Below, one piece after another: positions 1-10,792 of a stretch of DNA of 57,908 nt. The position numbers and the translations under genes were made by a program. Positions within the stretch are counted from its first letter, which is position 1; the number at the start of each line of letters is the position of its first letter. Origin of the DNA: Euzebyales bacterium (GTDB lineage: Bacteria; Actinomycetota; Nitriliruptoria; Euzebyales; JAHELV01); the NCBI GenBank assembly GCA_036374135.1, contig DASUUK010000010.1, forward strand, positions 1 to 57,908. Direction: 5' to 3'. A model generated the notes under the pieces. It made no database searches and was not told where the DNA came from. It was given only the letters and a program-made list of their open reading frames with translations.

Positions 1-250
1 GGCCGTCCTGCAGGACCTCCCGTGGGATCTGGCGGGCCGCCTGGGGCAGCCGCACGGATATCCACTCGAGGTCACGTGCCACCGCGGCGAGGCCGATCAC
101 CAGCAGCAGCCCCACCCGCACCGGCGTGGTGATCGGTGCGAACAGCCCTGAAAGCAGCCACAGCGCGAACAGTGTGCACAGCGCACCACACCACGCGCCG
201 AACCCGAAGGTGGCGACGCTCAGTCGCCCGGTCCACGTCGTCCGCCACAC
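1..250 (-). CDS. Membrane protein of the Mau-like operon (3' end outside window)
   Basis: This reading frame runs off the left edge of the window. It opens just downstream of the stop of the 62-residue membrane gene, and the GTG at 250 is the first good start. The visible ~83 residues hold two hydrophobic segments (around FGFGAWCGALCTLFALWLL and VRVGLLLVIGLAAVA) followed by a charged stretch with RQIPREV. I do not recognise the family. Its codon use and tight spacing make it the sixth member of the operon that starts at 2896. The true start could instead be a non-ATG codon slightly upstream. Confidence 0.5.
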   Translation of the reverse strand, partial: MWRTTWTGRLSVATFGFGAWCGALCTLFALWLLSGLFAPITTPVRVGLLLVIGLAAVARDLEWISVRLPQAARQIPREVLQDG

Positions 251-283
251 GGGCGAACCCAGCGCATCAGCGCCGTTGAGGCT

Positions 284-472
284 TCAGGGTGAGGCGGCGA
301 GCGCGTACGCGGCGCTCGCCGCGGCGAGGAACCACAGCCACCCGGCCGCGCTCGTGACCGCCGCGATGACGGCGACGGTGGCGAGCACGGCCAGCACGCC
401 GTCGGGGCGGTGGCGCAGTACGCCACGCCGCCGTGGTGCGGTCGTGCCCGACTGGGACGTGTCCGTGGTCAC
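284..472 (-). CDS. Small membrane protein (62 aa) in Mau-like operon
   Basis: This 62-residue protein has a short basic N-terminus (about residues 12-24) and two closely spaced hydrophobic segments covering residues 27-60. Its GTG start overlaps the stop of the Cys-rich Tat protein in a GTGA arrangement, the mark of translational coupling. No catalytic motif is visible and I do not recognise a family. By position it is probably a membrane accessory of the Cys-rich exported protein. Confidence 0.6.
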   Translation of the reverse strand: MTTDTSQSGTTAPRRRGVLRHRPDGVLAVLATVAVIAAVTSAAGWLWFLAAASAAYALAASP

Positions 473-1062
473 AGGCAGCCGATCCGCGTGCGGCAGATCG
501 TGCGGAGCGCGCCCGCGTCACCGATCGTGTAGCCGTCGTGGCAGCGGTTGGTGCGCTTGCCGGTCGTGCCGTTGGACTTGCGGCAGTTGCACGCGCGCCA
601 GAACCACCCGTCCTTCGAGCGGTTGCCGCCGCCGGCGTAGCACTGGTTCGGGCGCAGTCGGTGGATGCCGGTGCGTTTGTGCCAGCCGTTGAAGTTGCAG
701 CAGCTGTAGCAGACCGTGCTGCAACAGCAGTCCTTGCAGTTCGCGTAGCCGATGCCGTTGCAGCCGTACCGCGCGATGTCGTAGCCGTCGGCCAGTGCCT
801 CACGCGCCGGGGGGAAGACCCCGAGGGCCGACATGCCGAGCGCCGTCGCGCCGACGAACGCGGTCCGCAGCATTCCGCGGCGCGAGACCCGCGGACGCCA
901 CGACGGCGAGCGCAACGTGGACGCGTCGGCGTTGGCGGGTCGGCGGCCGCCGATCGGCGCGATGGCGTCGAGATCCAGCTCGCACCCGGCGTCGTCGACC
1001 GTCCGTCCGGCGGCCTCGCCGTCTGCGGTGCGCGGAGCGATTCGGGTGTGGTCGTCGATCAC
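469..1062 (-). CDS. Tat-exported cysteine-rich protein (14 Cys in mature part)
   Basis: The 197-residue product has a long N-terminal leader ending in a twin-arginine signal (SRRGMLRTAFVGATALGMSA) and a likely cleavage site near VFPPAREALADG. The ~105-residue mature domain carries 14 cysteines, including CKDCCC, CYSCC and ACNC clusters, plus three tryptophans. That is enough for seven disulfides. The architecture recalls the small subunit of methylamine dehydrogenase (MauA), which is Tat-exported, has six disulfides and carries a Trp-derived cofactor. I cannot align the two convincingly, and no large subunit (MauB) or MauG is visible here. It lies directly downstream of MauE-like and MauD-like genes, overlapping the latter by GTGA, so it is the likely substrate of their oxidative folding. 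Its function is unknown. Confidence 0.75.
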   Translation of the reverse strand: MIDDHTRIAPRTADGEAAGRTVDDAGCELDLDAIAPIGGRRPANADASTLRSPSWRPRVSRRGMLRTAFVGATALGMSALGVFPPAREALADGYDIARYGCNGIGYANCKDCCCSTVCYSCCNFNGWHKRTGIHRLRPNQCYAGGGNRSKDGWFWRACNCRKSNGTTGKRTNRCHDGYTIGDAGALRTICRTRIGCL

Positions 1063-1592
1063 TGGGCCACCTCCGGGCGGGCGTGGTCGGGCAGGTCGAG
1101 GCCGGCGGCGGCGATCAGGGGCAGCAACTGCGACACCCCGCCCACCGGGGTCGCCGCGGCGACGCGACCGTCGGCGTCGAGGGCCACGCCGTACGGCAGG
1201 GCGGTCGCGCCGACCGCAGTGAAGACGTCGTCGGCACCGGCGACGACCGGTGCACCGACCTCGGCGGCCGTCGGGTCGGTCCCGTCGGCGTACAGCAGCG
1301 CGATGTGGTCACGCACGACACGGGACGACAGCGTGGTGCGGACGCCCGCGAGCAGGCCGGCGCAGGCCGAGCAGTCCGCGTCGAGAAGCAGCAGCAGCCG
1401 CACACGTGCGGTATCGATCCCGTGGATGGGGGGAACCACCGCGCCGATCCGTCCCTGCGGTGTCCGTCGGGCCGCGGCCGCCGGCAGATCGCGCTGGAGG
1501 GCGTGCACCTGCCGCACCAGCCCCGCCACGACCAGTCCCAGCAGCAGCAGGGCGACCCACGTCAGGATCAGCGCGCTAGCGGTGAACGACAT
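1059..1592 (-). CDS. MauD-like thioredoxin-fold protein
   Basis: This 177-residue protein has one N-terminal transmembrane helix (residues ~6-26) and an extracytoplasmic thioredoxin-like domain. The redox motif is CSAC (DADCSACAG, about residues 74-77), and an ALPYG loop further on fits the cis-proline position. MauD proteins supply or isomerise disulfides during maturation of the methylamine dehydrogenase small subunit. Here the gene overlaps the MauE-like gene by 17 bases and the Cys-rich Tat protein by 4, so all three should be made together. A general membrane thiol-disulfide oxidoreductase is the alternative reading. Confidence 0.8.
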   Translation of the reverse strand: MSFTASALILTWVALLLLGLVVAGLVRQVHALQRDLPAAAARRTPQGRIGAVVPPIHGIDTARVRLLLLLDADCSACAGLLAGVRTTLSSRVVRDHIALLYADGTDPTAAEVGAPVVAGADDVFTAVGATALPYGVALDADGRVAAATPVGGVSQLLPLIAAAGLDLPDHARPEVAQ

Positions 1593-2154
1593 GTGCGCCC
1601 TCCTCGATCGTCGCGTACGGGCGGTATGTCTCCAGCGCGGACGGTGCCGTCCACAGCAGGACCACGAACGTCGCAGCCGCCAGCCAGGTGACGGTCAGCT
1701 CGGGACCGGTGGCGCCCGTCAACGATGGCGCCGTCGTCGCGGCGACCAGGGCGAGCGCGGCGAGCACGCCGGCGCGCAGTGGCACCAGGCCGGTGACGTC
1801 CGCACCGGTGGGGGAGCACCCGCAGGGCACCCGCTCGTCGTCGGCCCGGCGCAGCAACACGATCGCGTACCCCGTGAACGCGACGTACAGCACGGTGACC
1901 ACGAGGTGCGCCAGCGTGGCCGCCGACGTCGGCAGCCGGCCGGCGACCGCGATGACCGCGCCGACGCCGGCACCCATCTCGGCGACCGGCAGCGCGAAGG
2001 CTGTGGGGCCGACCATGGTCTCCCCGAGGAGTGCCTGGCGCCGCAGGTCCGAGATCAGCACGCGCGGCGCGGCGAGGTGACCGACACCCGCCACGAGCAG
2101 CAGCAGCCCTGGCACGAGACCGGTCAGGAGCTGTCCCAGCGTCTGGTCCGGCAC
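1576..2154 (-). CDS. MauE/DoxX-like redox membrane protein
   Basis: The 192-residue protein has four or more hydrophobic helices and a conserved-looking VPCGCSP motif after the second helix pair, which matches the cysteine motif of the MauE family. MauE works with MauD in forming disulfides in an exported partner, in a role similar to DsbB or VKOR. It starts with GTG one base downstream of the preceding gene's TAG stop. Its partner is most likely the 14-Cys Tat protein two genes downstream. Confidence 0.8.
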   Translation of the reverse strand: MPDQTLGQLLTGLVPGLLLLVAGVGHLAAPRVLISDLRRQALLGETMVGPTAFALPVAEMGAGVGAVIAVAGRLPTSAATLAHLVVTVLYVAFTGYAIVLLRRADDERVPCGCSPTGADVTGLVPLRAGVLAALALVAATTAPSLTGATGPELTVTWLAAATFVVLLWTAPSALETYRPYATIEEGAHVVHR

Positions 2155-2155
2155 G

Positions 2156-2896
2156 CTAGCGCCCCGGTCGACCGTTGGCCCTGTCCGAGGCTGGCGTGCC
2201 CTCGGTGCACGCGACCTTCAGCCGGCCGAGGCCGCGCTGCAGCGACGGGCGGGTCGTGGCCTGGTCGGGTAGGAGCCGCGTCGCCGAGGAGCGGTTGGCG
2301 ATCGTGTAGACCGTCTGATGGGGATTGGACCTGTCGACGTACACCTCGCCACCGCGCGCGGGCGTCCCCGCCCAACGTGGGATCTGGCTGCGCACGTGCG
2401 GATGCATCGGCGCGACGTCGAGCAGCCCGAGGCCCGGCACGACTTTCGTCAGCTGCGCGGGTGCTTCCCACCCCAGCCCGTCCTGCGCCGGATGCAGTGT
2501 CAGACCATGCCGGCCCTCCTCGAGCTCGAGCATGGCCAGCAGGTCGATGACCGTGGCCGGCGCGGCATTGGGGTGGAAGGCGTACAACGACCACCGTCCG
2601 CCGATCCACACAACCGCGGTGTGCTGCTGATCGGGCGCGCCCTGGGCGGGTGCGGACCCGGCCAGGAGCCGCCCACCCGCGAACTTGTAGGTCAGGTCGA
2701 GCTCCAGCCCGGCGACCTCCTCTGCCGCCCAGCGGGCGAAGTCCCCGGTGCCGGTGACGAACTCCTGCCGGTCGTCGTCGACCAGTGCGATCGCGTGGCT
2801 CGTCGCCGGCCTGCCGAGCTCGAAGCCCGGCAGTGAGATGGACACCTGTCCACCAGTGGCAGTCCCGTGACGTACCACCTCGTCCCGCTCGACCAT
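2156..2896 (-). CDS. Hypothetical protein, first gene of Mau-like operon
   Basis: I do not recognise this ~246-residue protein. It has no signal peptide or membrane segment and is rich in beta-type stretches (VSISLPGFELG, HTAVVWIGGRWSLYAF, HQTVYTIANRS). I chose the ATG at 2896, preceded by a G-rich stretch. An in-frame TTG at 3064 would add 56 residues, but that extension has poor third-position GC and includes AT-richer codons, so it is probably the promoter region. It heads an operon in which every following gene is coupled by overlap or a one-base gap. In methylamine-dehydrogenase clusters this place belongs to the beta-propeller large subunit. I see no propeller repeats, so that role is not supported. 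Confidence 0.65.
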   Translation of the reverse strand: MVERDEVVRHGTATGGQVSISLPGFELGRPATSHAIALVDDDRQEFVTGTGDFARWAAEEVAGLELDLTYKFAGGRLLAGSAPAQGAPDQQHTAVVWIGGRWSLYAFHPNAAPATVIDLLAMLELEEGRHGLTLHPAQDGLGWEAPAQLTKVVPGLGLLDVAPMHPHVRSQIPRWAGTPARGGEVYVDRSNPHQTVYTIANRSSATRLLPDQATTRPSLQRGLGRLKVACTEGTPASDRANGRPGR

Positions 2897-3076: not shown

Positions 3077-4357
3077 TCAGCGCAGGCAGGGATGAGGGTG
3101 GTCACGTAGCGCCAGGACGCGTGCTGCCGCCTCGTCCAGACGTCGCCGTCGCAGGCGGCCCCGACGGACCGCGTCGACCAGTCGGTCGCGCATGCGTCGG
3201 GCCTGTGTGCCGTCGGTGGCAAGGACAGCGTCCGCACCGGCGCGGATGGCCTGCTCGGCCGCGGCGGGGAACTTCCAGCGCCGGTGCACGGCGCCCATGC
3301 CCACCGAGTCGGTGATCGCGACGCCGTCGAACCCCATGTCGCGCAGCAGGCGGTACGCGGCCGGTGACATGCTGGCCGGCCTCCGCCGATCCAGGTGGCC
3401 GTACGTCACGTGGCTGAGCATCACGACCGGCACGTCGCCGGCGATCAGCCGCTCGAACGGTGAGAGGTGGCGGGTGCGCAACTGCTGCGGCGACGCCGTC
3501 GAGAGGACCTTCCGGCTGTGGGGGTCGATGCCCGCCGGGACGGCGCCATGGCCGGGGAAGTGCTTGGCTGTGGCCAGGATCCCGGCGTCGCGCAGGCCAC
3601 GTGCGAATGCCTGCGCATAGCGCCCCGCGACGTCCGGCATCGAGCCGAACGCACGGTCGCCGATCACGCCCGTCGCCGGGCCATCGTCGACGTCGGCCAG
3701 CGGCGCGAAGTCCCAGTCGACATCCAGATCCGCCAGCGACCGACCGAGCCGGCGCCCATCGGCGCGCACCTGGGCCGGTGTGAGGGTGGCGGCCATCGTC
3801 CGTGGACTCGACGAGGAGCCCAGCAGGGTGCGGAAGCTCGACACCCGCCCACGCTCCTCGTCGGTCGTGATCAGCGGTGCGGGCGCCGGCCCGGTCCGCA
3901 GCGCGCGGACCAGGGCGCCGACCTGGGTGGCCGATGTGACGTTGTAGCCGGTGAGGAACACCCCGCCGACGCCGAGCCGGGACAGTTCGGCGACCAGTGG
4001 GTCCGCCGGGTCGGTCACGTCGGGCATGCCCACGACCAGCACCAGCGCGGCCAGGCGACGCAGCGGCAGGCCGGCGCACGACGGTGGCAGCGTGACCGGA
4101 GGCCGGGCGGCGGTGCCGTCCGGGTCGGCGTCGCCGGACGCTACGTGATCACCCGCCGCCGCGTCGTCGTCCGGTCGGGTCACTTCGGTCTGCGCTCCGG
4201 CACCACCGTCGTCGACGGTGGCGGCGCCTCCGGCGCGGGGCGCGACCTGGCAGCCGACGCTGAGCATGACCGCGAGCAGCGCGGCAAGGATCAACAGCGG
4301 GGGATGGTGGCGGCGACGCACCGCACTACGGTACGCCGCGGCGACGGTGACGCACAC
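3077..4357 (-). CDS. Glycoside hydrolase family 3 beta-N-acetylhexosaminidase-like lipoprotein
   Basis: This 426-residue protein has a hydrophobic N-terminus ending in LSVGC, a plausible though imperfect lipobox, then a low-complexity Asp/Ala/Gly linker and a GH3 N-terminal barrel. Diagnostic motifs are KHFPGHG (265-271), the nearby DPHSRK, and the nucleophile segment ITDSVGMGA with Asp350. Single-domain GH3 enzymes of this length are usually NagZ-type beta-N-acetylglucosaminidases that remove GlcNAc from muropeptides or chitooligosaccharides. Export as a lipoprotein suggests action on the cell wall or external sugars. It is separated from the next minus-strand gene by about 180 bases. Confidence 0.85.
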   Translation of the reverse strand: MCVTVAAAYRSAVRRRHHPPLLILAALLAVMLSVGCQVAPRAGGAATVDDGGAGAQTEVTRPDDDAAAGDHVASGDADPDGTAARPPVTLPPSCAGLPLRRLAALVLVVGMPDVTDPADPLVAELSRLGVGGVFLTGYNVTSATQVGALVRALRTGPAPAPLITTDEERGRVSSFRTLLGSSSSPRTMAATLTPAQVRADGRRLGRSLADLDVDWDFAPLADVDDGPATGVIGDRAFGSMPDVAGRYAQAFARGLRDAGILATAKHFPGHGAVPAGIDPHSRKVLSTASPQQLRTRHLSPFERLIAGDVPVVMLSHVTYGHLDRRRPASMSPAAYRLLRDMGFDGVAITDSVGMGAVHRRWKFPAAAEQAIRAGADAVLATDGTQARRMRDRLVDAVRRGRLRRRRLDEAAARVLALRDHPHPCLR

Positions 4358-4397
4358 CGACCCACCGGCGGACGGCCGGCCACGAGTGTCGCCGCGG

Positions 4398-6026
4398 TCA
4401 TGCCAGGCGACGTGCGATCGCGGGGCGCAGCTCCGCCGGGCCGCTCGGCCGCGTCTGATGCGCCGTCTCGATGCGGACGTCGAGGGCGTCCGCGGCCGCC
4501 GTGACGGTGGCGACGTGGTTGTCGAACAGGGTCTCGCTCACGCGTTCCCAGTGCACGGGTGACGGACCCAGGCCTGCCAGGCGTGCCAAGGCGGCGGCGA
4601 CGAGCCGTCCCGGCGGGCCGACGCCGACGCGGTAGGCGCGCAGCAGCAGCGGCTCGACCGACTGGCGCATCGGCGACGCGACGACCTGATGGACGGGTGT
4701 CGTCGCGTTGGGCACGTCGAGCCGGGCGATGTAGCCGTGATGCACGTCGCCGGACAGCACCGTGACCGACATCGGGCCGTCGCGGCGCAGTGCGGCGTTG
4801 CCGATCAGGTTGACCATGCGGCGGAACCCCACACGGAACGCCGACCAGTGCTCCAGGTCGAACTCCTGACGCACGTCCTCGGCCCACCGGGCCACACGTC
4901 GTCCCCAGGCGCCGCCGACGAGTCGCTCGTTCCACCGCTCCAGGTCGTGCATGCTGCGCGGCATCAGCACGGGCAGGGACGTGGCGAGCAGCAGGTGCCG
5001 GCACTGCTCGGCCGCCTTGGCCTCCAGCCAGCGCCACTCGATGTCGTCGAGCATGTCCCGCTCGCCCTCGGTGAGCACGCGAGCGGCGCGGCTGTCGACG
5101 ACGATCAGGTGGTCATCGCCCAGCCAGCGCTCGAAGCTCCACCGGACGGTCTCCGGGTCGGCGTCGGCGTCCTCGGCGAACCGGTCGAGCAACGTGCCGG
5201 CGTCGTCGGACCGGCGGACCCGCTGGTAGAGGTCGTCGGCTGCCAGCGCGGTGGGGCTGAGGTTGCCGATGTGCTGGTAGATCCAGTAGGCGACCAACCC
5301 GCCGACGATGCGCTCGTGCCACCACCCGGTGGCGCGGATGTCGTGCAGCCAGCGCTCGGAGATGTTCCAGTCGTCGATGATGTCGTGGTCGTCGAAGATC
5401 ATCGCGACCGGAACGGTCGACAGCAGCCACCGCACCAACGGCGCCGACCAGCTCTCGCGGTACAGCTGCGTGTACTCGGTGAAGTCGGCGATCTCCTCCC
5501 ACGGCGGCTGGGTCGTGTCCCGGCGTTCGCGGATGAACGCGCGTGTCTGTGGTGACGCGTCGTCGGCGTACACCTGGTCGCCGAGCAGCAGGAGCAGATC
5601 GGGCCACTCGTCCTCGTCGGCGTCGATCATCCGGTGGGCGTACGCGGTCAGCGCGTCGGGACCGAGGCCACGCTCGTCCTCGTACCGCTCCAGGTTCCAC
5701 GGCGGCTCGAGCGGCGCCGCACCGCGGCACGACCCGAACGCGATCTGCGCGTCCCCGTGGCCGCCCGTGCGGATCACCGGGTCGGGCCGGTCGTAGTCGA
5801 CCGGCGGCCACACCCGGCGGCCGTCGAGCGCGACCTCGTAGGGGTAGGTGGTGCCCGGCTCGAGGCCGTCGATCTCGACCAGGGCGTAGTGGTGGTCATG
5901 GACGGAGAAGGTGGCGACCGTGCTGCCGAGCACCGTGACCTCGCACCGCTCGTCGGTCTCCACCCAGACGGTCGCGGATGTCTCATCGGCGAACCGCTGC
6001 AGGGGTCCGAGGACGAGTTCGGCCAT
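4398..6026 (-). CDS. PhoD-like metallophosphatase
   Basis: The 542-residue protein begins with a fibronectin-like N-terminal domain (LEPGTTYPYEV around residue 55) and continues with a PhoD-type metallophosphatase core. Metal-site motifs are FGSC (97-100), GDQVYADD (149-156), a DDHDIIDDW motif near residue 211 and LSGDVHHGYI near residue 430. PhoD enzymes hydrolyse phosphomono- or diesters with Fe/Ca or related metals. Unlike secreted PhoD it has no Tat signal at the ATG start, so it is predicted to be cytoplasmic. Specificity cannot be read from the sequence. Confidence 0.85.
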   Translation of the reverse strand: MAELVLGPLQRFADETSATVWVETDERCEVTVLGSTVATFSVHDHHYALVEIDGLEPGTTYPYEVALDGRRVWPPVDYDRPDPVIRTGGHGDAQIAFGSCRGAAPLEPPWNLERYEDERGLGPDALTAYAHRMIDADEDEWPDLLLLLGDQVYADDASPQTRAFIRERRDTTQPPWEEIADFTEYTQLYRESWSAPLVRWLLSTVPVAMIFDDHDIIDDWNISERWLHDIRATGWWHERIVGGLVAYWIYQHIGNLSPTALAADDLYQRVRRSDDAGTLLDRFAEDADADPETVRWSFERWLGDDHLIVVDSRAARVLTEGERDMLDDIEWRWLEAKAAEQCRHLLLATSLPVLMPRSMHDLERWNERLVGGAWGRRVARWAEDVRQEFDLEHWSAFRVGFRRMVNLIGNAALRRDGPMSVTVLSGDVHHGYIARLDVPNATTPVHQVVASPMRQSVEPLLLRAYRVGVGPPGRLVAAALARLAGLGPSPVHWERVSETLFDNHVATVTAAADALDVRIETAHQTRPSGPAELRPAIARRLA

Positions 6027-6099
6027 GCGCCCTCCCAGGTCGCGGGGGATTGTGGCGGGTCAAGCGTGCCACGCCGGCCGACCGACCGGCGCATCGTGC

Positions 6100-6131
6100 G
6101 ACGGAGCCGGGCCACAGGGCCCGGCTCCGTC
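6100..6131 (-). terminator. Hairpin terminator downstream of M28 remnant
   Basis: This is a perfect 14-bp inverted repeat (6100-6113 with 6118-6131) around an ACAG loop, between the 3' end of the broken M28 peptidase gene and the start of the PhoD-like gene. There is no U-tract, which is common for actinobacterial intrinsic terminators. It would end transcription coming from the right on the minus strand. Confidence 0.6.
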
Positions 6132-6149
6132 GTCGACTGGAGGGTGCCG

Positions 6150-7695
<1,546 letters not shown>

Positions 7696-7862
7696 CCGAG
7701 AGGGCGCGCGGTTTCGCTCCGCGGCGGCCGAGCACCGGCGACCGGCCTGCCGAGCGCCGGCGATTCGGCCTGCCGGCGCAACGGAACGGGATGCCCGTGT
7801 ACCGTGGACCGCAGTCGGCGTGAAGCGATGACGGTGGCGGCTGGCGTGCTCGACTGGATGCG

Positions 7863-7931
7863 GCGGGTCCGCACGGGGCGTGCGGACCCGCGTGACCTGG
7901 CGCGCGGACCGGTGGCGCGCCCGCCACCGGT
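7863..7931. promoter_or_regulatory. Two adjacent perfect inverted repeats between divergent genes
   Basis: The divergent gap between the YihY gene (starts 7695, leftward) and the alpha/beta hydrolase (starts 7993, rightward) contains two hairpin-forming repeats. The first has a 12-bp stem (7863-7874 with 7880-7891, five-base loop). The second has a 10-bp stem (7908-7917 with 7922-7931, four-base loop). Both are perfect. They may be operators or transcript-end structures. Their presence argues against extending the hydrolase gene upstream to the ATG at 7828. Nothing else is visible in the ~300-base gap. Confidence 0.55.
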
Positions 7932-7992
7932 GCGGTCGGCCGTGCACCAGACGCCGGTGCGCGCGCCCGGGCGGCTGCTGGCGATCCGCGTG

Positions 7993-8829
7993 ATGGCCCA
8001 GTTCGCCATCGCATCCATCGTCTTCGGCCTGGTGTTCCTCGTGCTCCCGCTGGGTGTGCGGGACGCCCTGATCTACTTCCCGTCGAAGACGGTGCCGCCT
8101 CCGGCCGAGGTCGGCCTGGCGGGTGCGGAGGACCTGACGGTGGTCACGCGCGACGGGCTGCGGCTGCGCGCGTGGTACGTGCCGGCTGCCGGAGAACCGG
8201 TGGGCGCTGTGCTTGTGCTGCACGGCAACGCCGGCCACCGGGCGCATCGCGCACCGCTCGCGGCCGCGCTGCGCGAACGCGGGCTCGCCACACTGCTGCT
8301 CGACTACCGCGGCTTCGGCGGCAACCCCGGTTCGCCGTCGCAGGACGGCCTGCTGGCCGACAGCGAGGCGGCCGCCGTCGCCCTCGAACGTCGCAGCGGC
8401 CTCGATCGCGCACGCATCGTCTACTTCGGGGAGTCGATCGGCACGGCGCCCGCGGCCTGGCTCGCCGCCCACCGCCCGCCGGCGGCCGTGGTCCTGCGCT
8501 CGCCGTTCCCGAGCCTGACCGACGTCGCGCGCCGTCGGTTCCCGTGGCTGCCGGTCGGGTGGCTGCTGCGTGACCACTACCCGCTCGCGTCGTGGATCGC
8601 CGGCTACGACGGTCCGTTGCTGGCGATCGCAGGCAGCAGGGACGATCTGATCCCCGTCCGGTACAGCCGACGGGCCGTCGACGCCGCAGGTGGCGAGGGC
8701 CGGCTGGTCGTGGTCGAGGGCGCCGGGCACAACGACCCGGCGCTGCTGGACGGAGACGAGATGCTGGAAGCGATCTCCGGGTTCCTCCGCGACGACGCCG
8801 GACTGGCTGTCCGGGACCCCGCATCGTGA
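7993..8829 (+). CDS. Membrane-anchored alpha/beta hydrolase (BEM46/YfhR-like)
   Basis: The 278-residue protein has one N-terminal membrane helix (residues ~3-20), then [12 protein letters not shown] and an alpha/beta hydrolase fold. Visible elements are the oxyanion motif VLHGNAGHR, the nucleophile elbow GESIGT, a late Asp in SRDDLIP and the catalytic His in GAGHND. This arrangement is typical of BEM46/YfhR-type hydrolases with unknown substrates. I chose the ATG at 7993, as membrane-anchored members start just before the helix and the upstream sequence forms strong hairpins. An in-frame ATG at 7828 is the alternative. Confidence 0.75.
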
Positions 8830-8935
8830 GCGTCGCGTCCCACGGGACGCACGGCGCGCGGACTACTGGTGTCTCACGGATACCATCGCGGTCGCCGCCG
8901 TCGCGGCACACCACCTCGTCGACTGTGAGCCCCCC

Positions 8936-10792
<1,857 letters not shown>

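What the first reader, a model, noticed from the sequence alone, without database searches (positions are those of the whole stretch)
1..2896. Mau-like maturation operon built around a Tat-exported 14-cysteine protein, without a visible methylamine dehydrogenase
Six tightly coupled minus-strand genes encode a soluble unknown protein, MauE-like and MauD-like disulfide-forming proteins, a Tat protein with 14 Cys in ~105 residues, and two small membrane proteins. MauD and MauE are known as dedicated maturation factors for MauA. Here the obvious partner has a similar design (Tat signal, dense Cys, several Trp) but does not visibly align with MauA, and MauB, MauG and MauC are absent. This may be an uncharacterised secreted enzyme, cofactor-bearing subunit or toxin-like peptide with its own oxidative-folding pair.
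Basis: partly seen in the sequence, partly recalled or inferred. Interest (0 to 1): 0.8.

Follow-up and report, generated by a model that had tools for sequence, protein, structure and literature searches.

The report
Selenoprotein MauF in a disulfide-maturation operon

Summary
The genes are real and the operon is closed: the contig edge overlaps another contig of the same genome by a unique 141 bp, and no mauB or mauC lies in the completed operon. The Tat protein (14 Cys in 106 residues) is an orphan and not detectably MauA. The main correction is that the 'two small membrane proteins' are one gene. They share a frame split by a single TGA (284-286). The joined product is a homologue of MauF, the third Mau maturation factor, and the TGA sits on MauF's conserved Cys (SP-C-G). 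Of 44 readable MauF-like genes from other genomes, 40 carry TGA at that codon, 4 carry TGC, none TAA or TAG. A hairpin with significant pairing follows the TGA, and the window has all six pairs. One relative carries tRNA-Sec, selA, selB and selD beside its operon. So this is very probably an undescribed selenoprotein family. A Tat-type Cys-rich protein accompanies 34 of 42 MauD+MauF loci by script (41 on inspection) against 1 of 26 MauE-only loci. MauDEF thus looks like a maturation module for exported disulfide-rich proteins. Unproven: Sec genes in this genome (30% sampled, none found), disulfides in the client, and the client's function.

The parts
2156..2896 (-). Soluble protein of unknown family, 246 aa, first gene of the operon (P0004)
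   Evidence: no Pfam/NCBIfam match; not alignable with the soluble protein that accompanies type-1 clusters
1576..2154 (-). MauE homologue, 192 aa, with PCGC motif (P0003)
   Evidence: Pfam PF07291 E 2.4e-13, 50.9 bits against a cut-off of 27
1059..1592 (-). MauD homologue, 177 aa: N-terminal membrane segment, thioredoxin-like domain with CSAC (P0002)
   Evidence: NCBIfam MauD is the only family hit but far below cut-off (E 0.003); profile of MauD-like proteins from related clusters, E 2e-14 (Z=5000), which also finds P. denitrificans MauD
469..1062 (-). Tat-exported Cys-rich client protein, 197 aa; SRRGML at residues 60-65, mature part about residues 92-197 with 14 Cys (P0001)
   Evidence: no homologue found; not MauA by profile
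2..472 (-). MauF-like membrane protein read through one TGA; 257 aa in all, TGA at residue 63; the C-terminal part lies on contig C114 (stop at C114:16686)
   Evidence: TM2 part matches the MauF-like profile E 4e-15, P. denitrificans MauF matches it E 1.5e-32; both ORFs in one frame, joined through the 141-bp overlap
284..286 (-). In-frame TGA, proposed selenocysteine codon, context ..LAASP-TGA-SLNG..
   Evidence: same alignment column as 39 other TGA codons and Cys79 of P. denitrificans MauF
260..275 (-). Hairpin 9-24 nt after the TGA (6 bp, 4-nt loop), candidate bacterial SECIS element
   Evidence: 6 of 6 pairs here; 208 of 246 pairs over 41 genes against at most 142 when partners are slid; 0 of 2000 shuffles reach the pairing or the two-sided changes; fold
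240..258 (-). Second hairpin 26-44 nt after the TGA
   Evidence: a similar second hairpin in many relatives

Best explanation
The operon is a complete disulfide-maturation module, MauE + MauD + MauF, dedicated to one exported Cys-rich protein (P0001). MauF is a selenoprotein: its TGA at 284-286 is read as selenocysteine, helped by the hairpin just behind it, and the Sec replaces the Cys of MauF's SPC motif in the first part of a DsbD/CcdA-like membrane fold. Proposed working: P0001 leaves through the Tat system; MauE (quinone-linked membrane oxidoreductase) and MauD (membrane-anchored thioredoxin) introduce and shuffle its up to seven disulfides; MauF carries thiol/selenol electrons across the membrane to keep MauD in its isomerase state. 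Shown by sequence: gene identities, frame, the Cys/TGA equivalence, hairpin, gene association. Inferred: Sec insertion itself, the direction of electron flow, disulfides in P0001, and what P0001 does outside the cell.
For: TGA equivalence: 46 MauF-like genes found near MauE in other genomes; of the 44 readable at this codon 40 have TGA and 4 have TGC, none TAA/TAG; 30 of 40 tabulated TGA codons (window included) are preceded by SP and all fall in one alignment column with Cys79 of P. denitrificans MauF. Homology: profile E 1.5e-32 for P. denitrificans MauF, 4e-15 for the window protein; read through, a relative (L059) matches Pfam DsbD_2 above cut-off (E 1.4e-10) over a stretch that includes the Sec position, another (L036) matches DsbD_2 and DsbD_TM weakly. 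Hairpin. Machinery: locus L050 has tRNA-Sec (Rfam 62.4 bits against 47), selA (357 bits against 268), selB and selD beside its TGA-MauF cluster; L105 has selA. The same TGA occurs in Thermomicrobium roseum NC_011961 beside an unannotated MauA-like ORF. Association: Tat Cys-rich ORF in 34 of 42 MauD+MauF loci by script against 1 of 26 loci with MauE only, Fisher p 1e-10; on inspection seven of the other eight also have one.
Against: No tRNA-Sec, SelA, SelB or SelD was found in the 1.2 of 3.98 Mb of this genome that could be read; inconclusive, but support for the window itself is by homology only. The window's MauF is divergent (Ser, not Gly, after the TGA) and alone gives no Pfam hit. Part of the hairpin signal may come from the conserved protein motif, and T. 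roseum and some relatives pair less well. The column match used C in place of the TGA, which favours it. P0001 has no homologue, so its partnership with the module rests on gene order, coupling and analogy.
Confidence: 0.82

Rival explanations
1. The TGA is a true stop and MauF is made as two separate membrane proteins (a split gene), as the first reader and standard annotation have it.
For: Gene callers split it; in T. roseum the RefSeq gene starts after the TGA. Both halves have possible starts and membrane segments.
Against: Always TGA, never TAA/TAG, in 40 genes from divergent genomes; TGC at the same codon in four relatives and in P. denitrificans a Cys; sense-like SP motif before it; conserved pairing behind it; Sec machinery beside one cluster.
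Confidence: 0.08
2. The Cys-rich protein is a divergent MauA-type light chain that carries a cofactor made from Trp side chains.
For: Same operon company and export route as MauA; three Trp in the mature part; one client of the same module (L076) does match the MauA profile (0 of 1000 shuffles).
Against: P0001 does not match MauA (96 and 101 of 1000 shuffles score as well); no MauG-type peroxidase in the genome (control rings); no mauB in the completed operon.
Confidence: 0.12
3. The Cys-rich protein is a secreted modified peptide or antimicrobial (RiPP-like).
For: decRiPPter put three Streptomyces families with mauE and precursors of at least 8 Cys among candidate RiPPs (PMC7794033).
Against: Tat leader and 100-200 residue products; several clients of the module are fused to LGFP repeats or other long C-terminal parts, which suits cell-surface proteins; no dedicated modification enzyme or exporter in this operon.
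Confidence: 0.1

Closest known systems
mauFBEDACJGMN cluster of Paracoccus denitrificans (methylamine dehydrogenase)
   Same: MauE, MauD and MauF homologues with a Tat-exported, Cys-rich small protein in one cluster
   Different: No MauB, MauC, MauG or MauJ in the operon; client not alignable with MauA; MauF has TGA where P. denitrificans has Cys79
DsbD/CcdA transmembrane thiol-electron carriers (Pfam PF13386, PF02683)
   Same: Read through, relatives of the MauF-like protein match DsbD_2 (E 1.4e-10) and DsbD_TM (2.6e-4) over a stretch that includes the Sec position
   Different: The window's own protein gives no match; no second Cys or Sec motif identified in the family; Sec instead of Cys
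Known bacterial selenoprotein families
   Same: UGA in place of a redox Cys, with Cys homologues and a hairpin just downstream
   Different: MauF is not named in the passages found in the 2006 survey or among the top 20 families of the 2016 survey, and no paper in the library holds both 'selenoprotein' and 'MauF'; supplements were not read
decRiPPter mauE/mauD candidate families in Streptomyces (PMC7794033)
   Same: mauE (one also mauD) with a precursor of at least 8 Cys and no other mau genes
   Different: Read there as RiPP clusters; MauF, Tat export and selenocysteine were not noted in the passages read

Membership tests
Selenoprotein | In-frame UGA at a position where homologues have Cys | tested here: met
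   40 TGA and 4 TGC of 44 readable relatives; P. denitrificans Cys79 in the same column
Selenoprotein | Hairpin (SECIS) just downstream of the UGA | tested here: met
   conserved 6-bp hairpin at +9 to +24, 0 of 2000 shuffles reach the pairing; window 6 of 6 pairs
Selenoprotein | tRNA-Sec, SelA, SelB, SelD in the same genome | tested here: inconclusive
   met in the L050 locus (all four) and partly L105 (selA); not found in the 30% of the window's genome that could be read
Selenoprotein | Selenium physically present in the protein | not testable with these tools
   needs 75Se labelling or mass spectrometry
MauF | Sequence homology to MauF | tested here: met
   profile matches P. denitrificans MauF at 1.5e-32 and the window protein at 4e-15
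MauE | Pfam PF07291 above cut-off | tested here: met
   50.9 bits against 27
MauD (TIGR02661 equivalog) | Score above the NCBIfam cut-off | tested here: not met
   16.9 bits against 188.6; it is a distant MauD-like protein by a cluster-derived profile, not the equivalog
MauA, methylamine dehydrogenase light chain | Profile match of P0001 to MauA | tested here: not met
   no Pfam PF02975 hit; 96 and 101 of 1000 shuffles score as well
Methylamine dehydrogenase system | MauB large subunit and MauG | tested here: not met
   absent from the completed operon; MauG family absent from the genome with working control; MauB search negative but without a ringing control

The most novel reading that the evidence does not exclude
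MauF is an unrecognised, widespread selenoprotein family, and MauE-MauD-MauF(Sec) is a general machine that matures many unrelated Tat-exported, disulfide-dense proteins; methylamine dehydrogenase is only its best-known client, and P0001 is a new client type.
Probability: 0.78. Interest if true: 0.85.

Novelty: new variant of a known kind. Interest (0 to 1): 0.8.

Why it matters
MauD, MauE and MauF are known from one enzyme, methylamine dehydrogenase. If MauF is usually a selenoprotein in these bacteria and the module serves many exported Cys-rich proteins, then (i) a selenoprotein family has been overlooked because annotation cuts the gene at its TGA, (ii) the Sec/Cys position names the likely catalytic residue of MauF, a direct test of a protein whose role is unclear, and (iii) a dedicated route for making exported proteins with five to thirteen possible disulfides becomes testable, with many natural clients to choose from.

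Tried and rejected
Close relatives of P0001: none in 66 genomes of the class, 396 of the phylum, genome contigs, viral contigs or plasmids. Two hits at E about 1e-3 are not credible: L002 (a P0001 hit) covers only residues 11-106 and has a stop inside; L004 (a MauE-protein hit) lies opposite an ATP-sulfurylase-like gene. By eye P0001 seemed to align with MauA and type-1 clients; profile scores against shuffles did not support it, so the claim was dropped. AlphaFold of P0001 alone gave pLDDT 32, unusable, so no fold search was run. Apparent SelB hits in this genome are not selB: L291 lies just behind rpsL-rpsG-fusA (position of EF-Tu), and L343 and the window's own hit are weaker against the SelB of L050 than against E. 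coli SelB. P0004 was not alignable with the soluble protein of type-1 clusters.

Full report
What is there. The ORFs are as described. The window is on contig C10 of a 3.98-Mb, 115-contig assembly and starts at the contig edge.

The operon is closed. A gene that directly follows the PhoD-GH3 pair in two congeners lies on contig C114 of this genome. C114 ends with the first 141 bases of the window, a sequence present only at those two contig ends. Across the junction the last ORF runs on to its stop, and then comes the conserved gene. The operon is therefore complete, lies between GH3 and that gene where the congeners have nothing, and contains no mauB, mauC or mauG. MauG-type peroxidases are absent from the genome with a working control.

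The proteins. P0003 is MauE. P0002 is a distant MauD-like protein. P0001 is a Tat-type precursor with 14 Cys in 106 mature residues and no relative in any collection searched. It is not MauA by sequence.

Neighbourhoods elsewhere. PF07291 is found in 196 of 396 genomes of the phylum. I read 110 of those loci. Many hold Tat-type Cys-rich proteins of several unrelated-looking kinds. Some are fused to long C-terminal parts such as LGFP repeats. One of them, in L076, matches the MauA profile (0 of 1000 shuffles). Scoring loci of at least 4.2 kb by script, a Tat Cys-rich ORF occurs in 34 of 42 loci that have both MauD-like and MauF-like genes and in 1 of 26 loci that have neither (Fisher p 1e-10). 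Of the eight missed, seven have one on inspection (motif variant, masked stretch or other frame) and one ends at a contig edge. These loci were chosen by MauE, so the counts describe MauE clusters only. In the reverse direction, the commonest client family (29 genomes) lies within 4 kb of MauE in 27; the other two are at contig ends (comparison).

The hidden selenoprotein. The second membrane ORF matches a profile of membrane proteins from those clusters (E 4e-15) that also matches P. denitrificans MauF (E 1.5e-32). The training set did not include the window. Most relatives in that set start abruptly after a stop codon. Looking upstream, the stop is TGA and the frame before it is open and usually ends in SP; P. 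denitrificans MauF reads SPCG there. Of 46 such genes, 40 have TGA, 4 have TGC, one is masked and one is truncated; none has TAA or TAG. In the window the same holds: the ORFs 284-472 and 2-250 share a frame, split by TGA at 284-286, giving ..LAASP-TGA-SLNGADALGSP... The read-through product has 257 residues with the TGA at residue 63; P. denitrificans MauF has 277 with Cys79. All 40 tabulated TGA codons, the window's included, fall in the column of Cys79 (the alignment used C at the TGA, which favours this). Read through, a relative matches Pfam DsbD_2 above cut-off over a stretch that includes that residue, so MauF looks like a DsbD/CcdA-type carrier and the Sec would sit at a redox position.

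Supporting features. A hairpin lies 9-24 nt after the TGA in most of the 41 genes: 208 of 246 possible pairs form, against at most 142 when partners are slid by 1-4 nt. No shuffle of 2000 reaches the observed pairing or the number of two-sided changes; the count of pair types is not significant (157 of 2000). The window's hairpin has all six pairs with different bases from most relatives; by energy alone it is unremarkable (z -1.6). In L050 tRNA-Sec, selA, selB and selD stand beside the cluster; L105 has selA. In T. roseum NC_011961 the same arrangement occurs with an unannotated MauA-like ORF, and the RefSeq gene starts after the TGA.

Limits. Only 1.2 Mb of this genome could be read for Sec genes and none was found; that is not a test. 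The window MauF is divergent. Nothing here shows selenium in a protein, disulfides in P0001, or what P0001 does.

Mechanism. Established knowledge (van der Palen et al. 1997, cited in PMC7794033): MauE and MauD are essential for methylamine metabolism, and MauE was proposed to act in disulfide formation. From that, the DsbD-like nature of MauF and the Cys-dense clients, I infer an oxidase (MauE), a thioredoxin-like isomerase (MauD) and a transmembrane reductant carrier with Sec (MauF) acting on an exported client. The direction of electron flow is a guess.

Prior work. decRiPPter noted mauE with precursors of at least 8 Cys in Streptomyces and read them as candidate RiPPs (PMC7794033). I found no paper joining selenoproteins with MauF; the one paper holding both 'selenoprotein' and 'MauE' is about Huntington's disease. 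The 2006 and 2016 surveys do not name MauF in the text read; supplements and closed literature were not searched.

Noticed in passing
L122 (NC_011961.1, Thermomicrobium roseum), about 3701-4320 and 6744-6746: Unannotated MauA-like ORF with Trp at both places that form the TTQ cofactor in MauA (SSWYMCC, NNWCG), followed by MauE, MauD and a TGA-containing MauF.
   Followed up: partly
L050 (other genome), 5546-9821: Complete selenocysteine cluster (selD, selB, selA, tRNA-Sec) directly beside a TGA-MauF cluster.
   Followed up: yes
L081, L083, L086, L104: Cys versions of the MauF-like gene (TGC at the TGA position) in clusters of two different client types, suggesting repeated Sec/Cys exchange.
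   Followed up: partly
L107 3869-4339 and L091 3799-4227: Further kinds of Tat-type Cys-rich proteins (24 and 13 Cys in the ORF) between MauD and MauF, no family.
   Followed up: no
L048, L049, L075: Clients with a Cys-rich N-terminal domain and a long C-terminal part that resembles cell-wall-binding repeats by eye (no Pfam hit on the piece tested).
   Followed up: no
window 3077-6026: GH3 glycosidase (Pfam E 1.9e-61) and PhoD-like phosphatase, a gene pair conserved in two congeners; the Mau operon is inserted next to it in this species only.
   Followed up: yes
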